This document shows positions 4,143 to 6,974 of a DNA stretch of 64,000 nucleotides, piece by piece. The DNA comes from Corynebacterium efficiens YS-314 (GTDB lineage Bacteria > Actinomycetota > Actinomycetes > Mycobacteriales > Mycobacteriaceae), in the NCBI RefSeq assembly GCF_000011305.1, contig NC_004369.1, forward strand, positions 682,001 to 746,000, given 5' to 3'. The notes beneath the pieces are model-generated. The model did no database searches and had not been told where the DNA came from. It saw only the letters and a list, made by a program, of their open reading frames with translations. The position numbers and the translations under genes are program-made. How positions within the stretch are numbered: the first letter of the stretch is position 1; the number at the start of each line of letters is the position of its first letter.

Positions 4143-5267
4143 TCAGGACCGGCGGTTGTCCAGCTGATCAACCTGGGCGAACAGCAGGTCGATGACCTCA
4201 CGGTTCAGGTTGCTGCGCAGGTCTGCGATGGAGGCGCGGCACGCATCCAGGTGGTGCCTGATGGTGTCGCGGGAGTACTCCTCCGCACCGCACTGGATGA
4301 GCAGATCGCGGATCTGTTCCCCCTGCGCGGTGGTGAGCTCGGCGTTGTTGAAGTTGACCTCGATGTCCTTCCAGTACCGGGTGGCGCGGGCGAACCCGAT
4401 GATGGTGGTCTCCTTGCCCTCCCGGAGGTCGGAGAAGGAATCCTTGCCGTGTTCGGCTGCTTCGCCAAAGGTGGAGAGGTAGTCATCCTGCAGCTGGTAC
4501 GCGGTGCCCAGGTGGGTGCCGATCACACCGACCTTCTGCTCATCCTCCTCCGACAGCCCGGCCAGGATGGCCGCGGCACGAAGAGGGAGTTCAAAGGTGT
4601 AGGTGGCGGTCTTCAGCCGGCTCATCTCCAGGGCGGTGCTGATATCGGGTGTGATCGCCCGGCTACTGAGTCCGACGTCGAGGAATTCCCCGACCAGGCT
4701 GTCGTTCATGGTGTGGTCGAGCAGGTCCAGCAGTCGCAGGCGGGTGGGGTGGGGCAGATCAACCCGGGCGAAGACCTGGTGCGTGGCGGCCAGGAAGAGA
4801 TTGCCGATGAGGATGCCATTGGAGCATGCCCAGTGCAGATGCTCCGGATCCGGGCCCCTGTCCGAGAAGTTGTCGGGGTCACGCTGTTTGAGGATCTGGC
4901 CGATGAAGTTGAGCTTGCCGCGGCGGTAGAGATCCCCGTCGATGACATCATCATGGACCAGGAAGGCGAAGTGCAGCAGTTCCGTGGCCACCGCGATCTG
5001 CAGGGCGGCCTCGCGGTTGGCCGTGCCTGCCGTCGCATCTGCGGTCATGGTGCGGTGGGTGCCCAGGAGCATGCGGGGGCGCACCAGTTTGCCACCACGG
5101 AGTGCCTGGAATGCGGTGTCGAGGCAGGCCCGGAATTCCGGCCCGTAACCACTGCACCGGTTAGACAGGGAGGAGAAGGTGCGATTGAGTTCCCGGTAGA
5201 TCTCCTCATTGAAGTCGAAGCCCGGGGGAGCCAACTGCTCGGTTGTCAGTGTCATGCCGTTGTCCAT
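4143..5267 (-). CDS. crtE: Geranylgeranyl diphosphate synthase CrtE
   Basis: Trans-isoprenyl diphosphate synthase that supplies GGPP to CrtB; first gene of the crt operon. The first Asp-rich motif is DDVID at residues 106-110 (in FLVHDDVIDGDLYRRGK) and the second is DDYLS at 261-265 (in YQLQDDYLSTFGE). The second motif has Ser where the last Asp of DDxxD is usual, a variation seen in other actinobacterial GGPP synthases. Length (374 residues) is normal. An alternative ATG lies four codons downstream (5253-5255); the upstream ATG is preferred because the C. glutamicum homologue, as I recall it, starts similarly. The promoter is shared with divergent crtR. Confidence 0.93.
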   Translation of the reverse strand: MDNGMTLTTEQLAPPGFDFNEEIYRELNRTFSSLSNRCSGYGPEFRACLDTAFQALRGGKLVRPRMLLGTHRTMTADATAGTANREAALQIAVATELLHFAFLVHDDVIDGDLYRRGKLNFIGQILKQRDPDNFSDRGPDPEHLHWACSNGILIGNLFLAATHQVFARVDLPHPTRLRLLDLLDHTMNDSLVGEFLDVGLSSRAITPDISTALEMSRLKTATYTFELPLRAAAILAGLSEEDEQKVGVIGTHLGTAYQLQDDYLSTFGEAAEHGKDSFSDLREGKETTIIGFARATRYWKDIEVNFNNAELTTAQGEQIRDLLIQCGAEEYSRDTIRHHLDACRASIADLRSNLNREVIDLLFAQVDQLDNRRS

Positions 5268-5394: not shown

Positions 5395-5440
5395 AATAAT
5401 ATCTTAAAGGTTAATGTTTTCAATTTTTAACAGTATCTGA
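5395..5440. promoter_or_regulatory. Divergent crtE/crtR promoter with putative CrtR operator
   Basis: The element ATCTTAAAGGTTAAT at 5401-5415 contains TTAA-3-TTAA and matches 14 of 15 bases of a motif before the lipocalin gene at 6852-6866. For crtE (minus strand) a fitting promoter is TTGAAA (5418-5423), 16 bases, TATTAT (5396-5401), so the motif fills the spacer. For crtR (plus strand) TTAATG (5411-5416), 17 bases, TATCTG (5434-5439) is possible. A MarR protein bound here would block both promoters. Known background: C. glutamicum CrtR represses the crt operon and is released by GGPP-type isoprenoid diphosphates. The exact operator is my inference. Confidence 0.65.
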
Positions 5441-5471
5441 CATTGAAAGAAAAAGGCGTTATCATTGATCT

Positions 5472-6101
5472 ATGCAGGAATCCGAAACAAAACACGGGGA
5501 CGAGTCGCCACTCAACAATCTCTATGATGTGAAATCGAGTGACCCGCGCAGCGAGCTCATCGACCGTTCAGACGTGTCACCAGCTGATGTCGCGCAGATC
5601 GGTCGGTTGATGAAGGCGCTGGCGAATCTCCGTGACACCGAGCGGGCCGTCGCCGCGGCCGCCTCGCGTTATATGGCGCTCAGCGCGCAGGACATGCGTG
5701 CCCTGCATTATCTGATGGTGGCGGGCAATACCGGTCAGGTGGTGACCCCCGGAATGCTGGGTGCACACCTCAACCTGTCTCCGGCATCGGTGACCAAGAT
5801 GCTCAACCGTCTGGAAAAGGGTGAACATATCATCCGAAAGGTTCACCCGGTTGACCGTCGTGCGTTCGCCCTTGAGGTCACCCAGGCCACCCGTGCCGAG
5901 GCCATGGAGACCCTGGGCAGGCATCAGGCGCGTCGTTTTGAATCCGCCAAACGCCTCACCAGTGAGGAGCGCGAGGTGGTTATCCGGTTCCTCGAGGATA
6001 TGGCCAATGAGCTCTCCCTCTCCAATGCCGCCTGGGCCGAGGGTGATGCCGGTTCGCGCGCTGCTGCACCGCCAGCAGGTCAGGATGCCAAGTCCGGCTA
6101 G
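5472..6101 (+). CDS. crtR: MarR-family regulator CrtR
   Basis: A 209-residue MarR-type winged-helix repressor divergent from the crt operon. After a hydrophilic N-terminal extension of about 40 residues there is a dimerisation helix, then the DNA-binding region at about 85-135: LGAHLNLSPASVTKMLNRLE is the recognition-helix segment and HPVDRRAFALEVT is the beta-wing. The position opposite crtE matches C. glutamicum crtR, which senses isoprenoid diphosphates. Only a weak purine-rich ribosome site (AAAAGG, about 15 bases upstream) precedes the ATG. The Ala/Pro-rich C-terminal tail is not conserved-looking. Transcription probably ends at the perfect hairpin directly downstream. Confidence 0.9.
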   Translation: MQESETKHGDESPLNNLYDVKSSDPRSELIDRSDVSPADVAQIGRLMKALANLRDTERAVAAAASRYMALSAQDMRALHYLMVAGNTGQVVTPGMLGAHLNLSPASVTKMLNRLEKGEHIIRKVHPVDRRAFALEVTQATRAEAMETLGRHQARRFESAKRLTSEEREVVIRFLEDMANELSLSNAAWAEGDAGSRAAAPPAGQDAKSG

Positions 6102-6115
6102 TGGCGTAAATATTT

Positions 6116-6151
6116 CAGGCCCCAGGGGGATCATGATCCCCCTGGGGCCTG
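6116..6151. terminator. Bidirectional terminator between crtR and lipocalin gene
   Basis: A perfect 36-base palindrome with 18-base arms (CAGGCCCCAGGGGGATCA and its complement) between two convergent genes, followed on the plus side by TTGTGTTT. The extreme stability and the location 14 bases after the crtR stop and 20 bases from the lipocalin stop support a shared two-way terminator. Confidence 0.85.
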
Positions 6152-6170
6152 TTGTGTTTCCCGGTGGTTT

Positions 6171-6821
6171 CTACAGGGTGCAGAGTGGTGCGACGTCGGT
6201 CTTGCTGCCTGCTGCTGGCACGGTCACGAAGGCGCATGACCACCAGCCACGGTCCTCGGTGATGTTGCGGACCTTGGTCCAGTCCTCAGGGCTCAGGTCC
6301 GGGGTGCGGGACAGGACGAAACCTGACAGGCGGTTGGGGCTGCCCACGATCGCCAGGGAGTAGTCGTCCTCCAGGTAGGTCACGCGGTAGTTCGGCTCGC
6401 CCTCCTCGGTCTGGAAGGGCACGCCCCCGAAGGTGACCTTGAGGGAGGCGTCGGAGCGCACCGTCGCCTTGCCCTGGATGACGGAGGGGCCGAATGGGGT
6501 GCCGCAGGAGTTGGCCACGGAGATGGTGTTCTCATCGATCTTCTCGTATTCCGCGGTGGTGTCATTGGAGCACTGCAGGGTGTAGGGCTGTGGGATGGCC
6601 GCGACCTGGTACCACTTGCCCTGGTAGCGCTCGAGGTCCACCTTCTGGTCGACCTCCGGCAGTGCCTGGCTCTCCGGGGTGGAGCTGAGGTTGGTGATCT
6701 GGGATGAACCGCCGGCGAGGCGACCACCGTCGAAGATGTCCTGGGCCTGGGCCGTGCTGACCCCGGTGATGGAGAGTGCGGACAGCAGCGCTGCGATGGT
6801 GAGTTTTCTGGACAGGCGCAT
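6171..6821 (-). CDS. Secreted lipocalin (Blc-like)
   Basis: A 216-residue exported lipocalin. A Sec signal peptide is clear (MRLSRKL, hydrophobic core, AQA cleavage after about residue 26) and no lipobox Cys is present, so it should be released or wall-associated rather than lipid-anchored. The lipocalin signature GKWYQVAAIP is at 68-77. Several Cys residues (QCSND, NSCGTP, WWSCAF, PLCTL) could form disulfides in the exported protein. The gene is convergent with crtR, and its promoter carries the same 15-base element as the crtE/crtR region, so co-regulation with carotenoid synthesis is likely. An isoprenoid or carotenoid ligand is a reasonable guess but is not shown by the sequence. Confidence 0.88.
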   Translation of the reverse strand: MRLSRKLTIAALLSALSITGVSTAQAQDIFDGGRLAGGSSQITNLSSTPESQALPEVDQKVDLERYQGKWYQVAAIPQPYTLQCSNDTTAEYEKIDENTISVANSCGTPFGPSVIQGKATVRSDASLKVTFGGVPFQTEEGEPNYRVTYLEDDYSLAIVGSPNRLSGFVLSRTPDLSPEDWTKVRNITEDRGWWSCAFVTVPAAGSKTDVAPLCTL

Positions 6822-6845
6822 GATGAAACTCGCTTTGTTTCTGTT

Positions 6846-6877
6846 TATATTATCTTAAAAGTTAATACTTCTTGAAG
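6846..6877 (-). promoter_or_regulatory. Lipocalin promoter with CrtR-like operator
   Basis: ATCTTAAAAGTTAAT at 6852-6866 differs at one base from the crtE/crtR element at 5401-5415. On the minus strand TTCAAG (6871-6876), 18 bases, TAATAT (6847-6852) would be a promoter ending about 26 bases before the ATG, with the motif filling the spacer exactly as at crtE. Confidence 0.6.
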
Positions 6878-6974
6878 TGTACTACAAACCGGTTCGTTTG
6901 GGGATGTCTCTGCAAAGATGCACCTCACGGCACTGTGATGAGCCACACCATGGAAAATCCCTATACTCGCGCCC

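What the first reader, a model, noticed from the sequence alone, without database searches (positions are those of the whole stretch)
5395..6877. Near-identical CrtR-type operator shared by the carotenoid operon and a secreted lipocalin gene
ATCTTAAAGGTTAAT (5401-5415) and ATCTTAAAAGTTAAT (6852-6866) match at 14 of 15 positions and both sit in the spacer between plausible -35 and -10 elements (crtE and the lipocalin, each on the minus strand). CrtR is known as an isoprenoid-diphosphate-responsive repressor. A shared operator would place a lipocalin, a family of small hydrophobic-ligand carriers, in the same regulon as carotenoid synthesis.
Basis: partly seen in the sequence, partly recalled or inferred. 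Interest (0 to 1): 0.72.

Follow-up and report, generated by a model that had tools for sequence, protein, structure and literature searches.

The report
Probable second CrtR operator at lipocalin
The repressor that switches off carotenoid (pigment) synthesis in this bacterium very probably has a second DNA docking site, in front of a neighbouring gene for a secreted lipid-binding-type protein, so that pigment and protein are made together.

Summary
In detail: two near-identical 15-mers lie in the crtE and lipocalin promoters; in the 3.2-Mb genome nothing else comes within 2 mismatches. They are the core of a 22-bp imperfect inverted repeat whose downstream arm overlaps the -10. A consensus made from crtE sites alone finds 13 places with at most 2 mismatches in eight whole genomes: the 8 crtE promoters and 5 lipocalin promoters. 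Among 68 Corynebacterium lipocalin upstream regions the eight top scores all come from genomes where lipocalin, crtR and crtE are neighbours. In C. glutamicum, deleting crtR raised only the crt operon and the lipocalin gene cg0726 (8-10-fold; Henke 2017), but the authors proposed a single CrtR site. A second operator explains that result. The C. glutamicum lipocalin is also a reported O-mycoloylated protein (Cgl0628; all six reported serines match), which would tie carotenoid synthesis to an outer-membrane protein. Caveats: I found no test of CrtR binding at the lipocalin promoter; published gel shifts show the downstream arm dispensable at crtE; of nine core genomes one lacks the upstream arm and another lacks TTAA. 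What the lipocalin does is inference.

The parts
5396..5417 (-). CrtR operator of the crt operon, 22 bp: ACATTAAC-CTTTAA-GATATTAT (upstream arm 5410-5417, downstream arm 5396-5403)
   Evidence: Position corresponds to the TTAA element shown by EMSA, mutation and footprint in C. glutamicum; whole-genome scans
5418..5423 (-). putative -35 of crtE (TTGAAA); -10 TATTAT at 5396-5401, 16-bp spacer
   Evidence: sequence reading; not mapped in this species
6847..6868 (-). proposed CrtR operator of the lipocalin gene, 22 bp: GTATTAAC-TTTTAA-GATAATAT (upstream arm 6861-6868, downstream arm 6847-6854)
   Evidence: 1 mismatch to the crtE-only consensus, and the only place besides crtE with up to 3 mismatches in this genome; 18 of 22 identical to the crtE operator, 0 of 400 shuffles as good
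6844..6852 (-). putative -10 of the lipocalin gene (TAATAT 6847-6852, or TATAAA 6844-6849, the hexamer and offset of the C. glutamicum crtE -10)
   Evidence: sequence reading; comparison with the C. glutamicum crtE promoter
6875..6884 (-). TAGTACACTT, a conserved element just upstream of the operator (alternative -10-like TACACT 6876-6881)
   Evidence: similar in the 13 aligned lipocalin promoters; function unknown
5472..6101 (+). crtR, MarR-type repressor (209 aa), divergent from crtE and convergent with the lipocalin gene
   Evidence: PF12802; 73% identical to C. glutamicum CrtR
6171..6821 (-). secreted lipocalin (216 aa), orthologue of cg0726/Cgl0628
   Evidence: PF08212; best solved relatives temperature-induced lipocalin and Blc; 69% identical to the only C. 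glutamicum match at E 1e-30
4143..5267 (-). [quoted passage not shown]
   Evidence: PF00348
1830..4094 (-). MmpL-type RND transporter, second gene of the crt operon
   Evidence: PF03176
907..1833 (-). crtB, phytoene synthase type
   Evidence: PF00494

Best explanation
CrtR is a local repressor with two operators. It sits on a 22-bp imperfect inverted repeat over the crtE promoter and on a second copy over the promoter of the lipocalin gene on the other side of crtR, and blocks RNA polymerase at both. When CrtR lets go (reported triggers: GGPP and other isoprenoid diphosphates in vitro, blue light in vivo), carotenoid enzymes, the MmpL transporter and the secreted lipocalin are made together. 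Shown elsewhere: CrtR represses crtE directly, and crtR deletion derepresses the C. glutamicum lipocalin gene 8-10-fold. Shown here: the second operator-like site, its near-confinement to these promoters, and its co-occurrence with crtR. Inferred: direct binding at the lipocalin promoter, and the lipocalin's role, most likely an envelope protein that holds or shields carotenoids or other lipids under photo-oxidative stress.
For: Motif rarity. crtE-only consensus: all 13 places with at most 2 mismatches in 8 genomes are crtE (8, by construction) or lipocalin (5) promoters. crtE-trained matrix, own genome left out: the top 8 of 68 lipocalin upstream regions are all crtR/crtE-linked, at a constant -46/-47. 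13 of 68 reach 12/16 on the repeat, all from genes near crtR, 0 of 52 others. The same repeat, spacing 6, in crtR upstream regions not used to define it: 7 of 78 reach 13/16 against a shuffle mean of 0.04; perfect in Leucobacter sp. 7(1). C. glutamicum crtR-deletion transcriptome: 7 crt genes plus cg0726 only. TTAA essential for CrtR binding and repression; footprint with TTAA in its centre.
Against: No binding assay at the lipocalin promoter. G046 lipocalin lacks the upstream arm (best match 14/22, reached by 31 of 400 shuffles). TTAA is in the upstream arm in only 5 of 9 lipocalin sites; in G186, C. glutamicum (G212) and G046 it is in the downstream arm, and G044 has none. The downstream arm coincides with the -10, so its conservation is not independent; in Henke 2017 fragment F (primers SFT29/SFT27) ends before that arm at crtE and was still bound at 30-fold excess. 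At 3 mismatches chance sites appear (30 places, 15 of them crtE or lipocalin; backwards control 7 matches), and the lipocalin sites of G186 and C. glutamicum are not unique at their score. 71 of 78 other crtR upstream regions do not reach 13/16. The nine core genomes are one clade, so their promoters are not independent samples.
Confidence: 0.85

Rival explanations
1. The lipocalin gene responds to crtR loss only indirectly: through carotenoid or isoprenoid changes, or because the deletion removes the convergent crtR transcript. The shared sequence is then not used by CrtR.
For: Henke 2017 proposed a single CrtR site and called cg0726 only 'possibly' in the regulon; crtR and the lipocalin gene are convergent neighbours.
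Against: A crtE-like site sits at a constant distance in the lipocalin promoter in 8 of 9 crtR/crtE-linked genomes (scores 16.1 to 26.7), while the best of 52 comparison regions scores 8.2; only the adjacent crt genes and this gene changed, which an indirect metabolic effect would not predict.
Confidence: 0.08
2. The similarity is only that of two AT-rich sigma-A promoters (-10 and surroundings) in a GC-rich genome.
For: The downstream arm overlaps the -10 in both promoters; the motif is AT-rich, and some unrelated lipocalin regions also beat their own shuffles at low scores.
Against: The upstream arm ATTAAC lies outside the -10; no other place in this genome comes within 2 mismatches of the 16-mer or within 3 of the crtE-only consensus; own-genome shuffles reach the crtE-lipocalin match in 0 to 2 of 400 for 8 of 9 genomes; in C. 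glutamicum and G186 the crtE half-site is inverted in the lipocalin promoter (GAGTTAATAT against ATATTAACTC), which a -10 alone does not require.
Confidence: 0.04
3. A different regulator binds the lipocalin site.
For: No direct binding data for CrtR there.
Against: The site co-occurs with a nearby crtR and resembles the crtE site, and crtR deletion derepresses the gene in C. glutamicum.
Confidence: 0.03

Closest known systems
CrtR-crt operator of C. glutamicum (Henke 2017 PMC5401885, Sumi 2019 PMC6739363, Henke 2020 PMC7432914)
   Same: Same regulator family, same gene order, same TTAA-centred element overlapping the crtE promoter; lipocalin cg0726 up 8-10-fold without crtR.
   Different: Those papers describe one operator (Henke: short palindromes TTAA and AAATTT, a 15-19-bp motif; Sumi: no inverted repeats found). 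Here there is a second operator-like site at the lipocalin gene, and both fit one 22-bp inverted repeat.
O-mycoloylated 'bacterial lipocalin' Cgl0628 of C. glutamicum (PMC11066868)
   Same: Orthologue of the window's lipocalin: all six reported serines (39, 40, 43, 46, 138, 165) are serines in the C. glutamicum protein.
   Different: The passages I saw do not speak of its regulation; in the window protein three of the six positions are Ser, two Thr, one Leu.
Light-induced crt cluster with lipocalin gene in Chryseobacterium lacus (PMC7064467)
   Same: A lipocalin gene next to carotenoid genes, up-regulated with them.
   Different: Another phylum (recalled), regulator unknown; the passages I saw give no operator.
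E. coli Blc and plant temperature-induced lipocalin
   Same: Sequence relatives among solved structures, E 1e-4 or better.
   Different: The window protein has a signal peptide without a lipobox cysteine; stress protection by such lipocalins is from abstracts and recall (listing), not tested here.

Membership tests
CrtR regulon | CrtR-type operator overlapping the promoter | tested here: met
   shared 22-bp element at 6847-6868
CrtR regulon | TTAA core required for CrtR binding | tested here: met
   present in the window's lipocalin site; in one or other arm in 8 of 9 core-genome lipocalin sites, absent in G044
CrtR regulon | derepression on crtR deletion | not testable with these tools
   published for the C. 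glutamicum orthologue, 8-10-fold
CrtR regulon | CrtR binds the promoter fragment in vitro | not testable with these tools
   seen in print only for the crtE-crtR region and orthologous crtR upstream regions
CrtR (MarR family) | MarR domain and divergent crt operon | tested here: met
MarR-type palindromic operator | inverted repeat of two half-sites | tested here: inconclusive
   repeat found with a spacing peak at 6, but the downstream arm is also the -10 and is dispensable for binding at crtE in the published gel shift
Lipocalin | lipocalin domain and G-x-W motif | tested here: met
   PF08212 E 1.2e-46; G68 and W70 invariant in 6 orthologues
Lipocalin | eight-stranded beta-barrel fold | tested here: inconclusive
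   AlphaFold2 model too poor, mean pLDDT 52; not used
Bacterial lipoprotein (annotation of cg0726) | lipobox cysteine after the signal peptide | tested here: not met
   no cysteine before residue 84 in the window or C. glutamicum protein
O-mycoloylated protein | mycoloylated Ser/Thr | not testable with these tools
   reported for C. glutamicum Cgl0628; S39 and S40 invariant in 6 aligned orthologues

The most novel reading that the evidence does not exclude
The CrtR regulon is a built-in carotenoid delivery and membrane-shielding unit: the crt enzymes make the C50 carotenoid, the co-transcribed MmpL transporter moves it (or a relative) across the inner membrane, and the co-regulated, mycolate-anchored lipocalin holds it or protects lipids in the outer mycomembrane. 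This would be a carotenoid or isoprenoid transport route in mycolate-bearing bacteria.
Probability: 0.15. Interest if true: 0.75.

Novelty: new member of a known kind. Interest (0 to 1): 0.45.

Why it matters
It turns an unexplained line in a 2017 transcriptome (cg0726 up without crtR) into a likely direct target, argues against the idea that CrtR has one site, and gives the operator a testable longer shape that could help tune CrtR-based GGPP biosensors. It also links carotenoid synthesis to a lipid-modified lipocalin, so the question of how carotenoids reach, or protect, the mycomembrane becomes testable with single-gene mutants.

Tried and rejected
Considered and rejected: chance or plain promoter similarity. 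The idea that the operator is only the 15-mer was replaced by the 22-bp element. Presence or absence of crtB-type genes across the genus is uninformative, since 230 of 242 genomes have one; gene proximity was used instead. The AlphaFold2 model (mean pLDDT 52) was too poor, and no fold search was made. I looked for the repeat in 16-kb stretches around crtB of four genomes in which crtR and lipocalin lie apart from crtB (G061, G018, G220, G168): none at 11/16 or better in the first three, one 11/16 site in G168; whether CrtR controls crt there is open. A search for LitR/photolyase/carotenoid/lipocalin papers (22 papers, 15 listed) led me to open one new paper, the Chryseobacterium case. The 12/16 and 13/16 thresholds and the genome classes were chosen by me after seeing the promoters. 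Own-shuffle p-values are weak evidence: several unrelated regions with low scores also reach p 0.025 or less (G199, G121, G113, G096, G075, G039), so the ranking by score is what I rely on.

Full report
WHAT WAS CHECKED. Within the window they are the only matches with up to 3 mismatches (shuffle mean 0.10). Across the whole genome, the 16-mer with one leading T has 4 matches with up to 3 mismatches: these two, exact, and two at 3 mismatches; the backwards control has 8. The window is G000:C3:682001-746000; C3 is 3,147,090 bases, which I recall as the chromosome length of C. efficiens YS-314 (not verified by a call). Gene calls by Pfam: polyprenyl synthase (crtE), MMPL transporter, squalene/phytoene synthase (crtB), MarR regulator (crtR), Lipocalin_2, an NAD-binding/epimerase-type protein with DUF2867, photolyase.

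THE ELEMENT. Lining up the crtE and lipocalin promoters of related genomes shows that the 15-mer is part of a 22-bp imperfect inverted repeat, ATATTAAC-N6-GWTAATAT, read in the sense of both genes. In the window: crtE ACATTAACCTTTAAGATATTAT (5396-5417, minus) and lipocalin GTATTAACTTTTAAGATAATAT (6847-6868, minus), 18 of 22 identical; 0 of 400 shuffles of the lipocalin upstream region did as well. The same test in the other eight core genomes: 0 of 400 in five, 1 in G117, 2 in C. glutamicum, 31 in G046. The upstream arm at crtE holds the TTAA that is essential for CrtR binding and repression in C. glutamicum (Henke 2017, PMC5401885; passages, sections 16 and 17 and part 1 of section 21 seen). 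Sumi 2019 (PMC6739363, passages seen) footprinted CrtR from -58 to -7 of the crtE start, with TTAA in the centre, and said they could not find inverted repeats. Henke 2020 (PMC7432914, passages and section 6 seen) gives a 15-bp motif conserved upstream of crtR orthologues.

SPECIFICITY. To limit circularity I made a consensus from eight crtE sites only (AYATTAACNNWTNRGATANTAT) and scanned the eight whole genomes. With at most 2 mismatches there are 13 places: the eight crtE promoters (matched by construction) and five lipocalin promoters. With up to 3 mismatches there are 30 places, 15 of them crtE or lipocalin; the backwards control has 7 matches. In the window's genome there are two places even at 3 mismatches. 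The repeat itself, ATATTAACNNNNNNGWTAATAT (derived from both gene sets), gives 19 places with at most 2 mismatches in these eight genomes, 15 of them crtE or lipocalin, and 4 in C. glutamicum, 2 of them crtE and lipocalin; at 3 mismatches it has other hits in each of these genomes, the window's included. The lipocalin sites of G117 and G090 are perfect palindromes.

CO-OCCURRENCE. CrtR-like proteins (E 1e-20 or better) are in 24 of 242 Corynebacterium genomes, lipocalins (E 1e-30 or better) in 63 of 242, 68 places. I took the 250 bp upstream of all 68 matches. A matrix trained on crtE sites, own genome left out, ranks the lipocalins of 8 of the 9 genomes with crtE, crtR and lipocalin side by side as the top 8 of 68, starting at -46 or -47 in all eight; the ninth, G046, ranks 15th. 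These nine average 20.2 against -2.5 (maximum 8.2) for 52 others. The 52 include three second lipocalins of crtR genomes and five genes of genomes with a more distant CrtR-like protein; five genes next to a crtR without crtE beside it and two about 6 kb from crtR were kept out of that comparison. Counting matches to the repeat at spacing 6, 13 of 68 reach 12/16: 9 of 9, 3 of 5 and 1 of 2 in those classes, 0 of 52 others; other spacings from 2 to 10 give 0 to 5 of 68. This second count is partly circular, since the repeat was drawn from the core genomes. The nine genomes are one clade, so the Mann-Whitney p of 1e-6 overstates independence.

OTHER SUPPORT FOR THE REPEAT. In 78 crtR upstream regions from named records (80 kept of 324; two dropped because they are the genomes G156 and G046), 7 reach 13 of 16 at spacing 6 against a shuffle mean of 0.04 (largest 2 in 100 sets); other spacings from 0 to 12 give 0 to 2. 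Leucobacter sp. 7(1) has a perfect copy. 71 of 78 do not reach that score, so the repeat is not universal for CrtR-like proteins. In C. glutamicum and G186 the crtE half-site is turned round in the lipocalin promoter (GAGTTAATAT, the complement of ATATTAACTC), which fits a symmetric operator.

RESULTS AGAINST. The downstream arm is also the -10, and in Henke's gel shifts fragment F, which stops before that arm, was still bound at 30-fold excess; so one arm suffices in vitro at crtE, and the repeat as a functional unit is not proven. G046 lacks 17 bases, including the upstream arm. TTAA is in the upstream arm in 5 of 9 lipocalin sites, only in the downstream arm in G186, C. glutamicum and G046, and absent in G044. 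In the crtR-lipocalin subclade apart from crt (C. hylobatis, C. lemuris, C. pollutisoli, G168) the lipocalin sites are weak (11 to 12 of 16).

TRANSCRIPT EVIDENCE. Henke 2017, Table 2: without crtR eight genes change: the seven crt-operon genes (13- to 69-fold) and cg0726 (8-fold in LB, 10-fold in CgXII), 'putative secreted lipoprotein'; lpc, putative lipocalin, appears in the legend of their Figure 1. [quoted passage not shown] G212 holds four of that paper's primer sequences exactly, so it is C. glutamicum (3,309,401 bases; ATCC 13032 by recall); the lipocalin gene next to its crtR is therefore cg0726 by position. Its promoter carries GTAATAACTATTGAGTTAATAT, followed by the same TATAAA at the same offset as the crtE -10. 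phrB, close by, is not CrtR-regulated (Sumi 2019).

THE LIPOCALIN. It has a signal-like N-terminus (by eye) without a lipobox cysteine, four invariant cysteines in six orthologues, and its closest solved relatives are temperature-induced lipocalin and Blc. It is the only match at E 1e-30 in C. glutamicum. A chemical-proteomics study (PMC11066868, passages seen) lists 'Cgl0628 bacterial lipocalin' as O-mycoloylated at S39, S40, S43, S46, S138, S165; all six are Ser in the G212 protein (chance 5e-6 for random positions), which identifies it. Thus the 'secreted lipoprotein' is probably held in the mycomembrane by mycolates. By my reading of the tables, at least 18 of 68 lipocalin genes lie within 10 kb of a crtB-type gene (the crtB list was cut, so this is a lower bound), including three in genomes without a CrtR at E 1e-20 (G019, G178, G029); this ties the lipocalin to carotenoid genes even apart from CrtR. 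In C. glutamicum S9114 a lipocalin (CgS9114_02593) fell with Tween 40, and its deletion is mentioned as aiding ornithine production (PMC6943917, two passages); I did not check that it is the same gene.

PRINT STATUS. Searches for cg0726 (28 papers, 15 listed), lipocalin with C. glutamicum (23 papers, 15 listed), CrtR with inverted repeat (7 papers) and cg0725/cg0726/lipocalin (1 paper): in the listings and in the passages I opened I saw no operator upstream of the lipocalin. Papers outside the held library and supplements were not searched. MprAB work lists cg0726 with values 0.22 and -1.05 in two comparisons (PMC12113857, one passage).

VERDICT. Co-regulation was already reported for C. glutamicum; the second operator, its conservation and its near-confinement to two promoters are what is added. 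Direct control of the lipocalin by CrtR is very likely; the lipocalin's job is open.

Noticed in passing
L172 (G061), L173 (G018), L167 (G220), L171 (G168): In C. lemuris, C. hylobatis, C. pollutisoli and G168 no crtE or crtB match lies beside crtR (crtB lies elsewhere), yet the lipocalin gene is still its convergent neighbour.
   Followed up: partly
L252:1545-1566 and L253:1578-1599: A conserved palindrome ATATCAACCRAAAGTTTGATAT lies between two divergent genes in the C. lemuris and C. hylobatis genomes; regulator unknown.
   Followed up: no
L251:5198-5219 (G205): One of the two best matches to the repeat in that genome (2 mismatches to the scan pattern) lies just upstream of a gene resembling cysteine synthase (by eye) that heads a gene run ending in the lipocalin gene.
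   Followed up: no
window:6875-6884: TAGTACACTT upstream of the lipocalin operator is conserved even in promoters that lack the operator's upstream arm; it may be another promoter element.
   Followed up: no
window:6975-8537: The gene divergent from the lipocalin encodes an NAD-binding/epimerase-type domain joined to DUF2867 and stays near the lipocalin and photolyase genes in several relatives.
   Followed up: no
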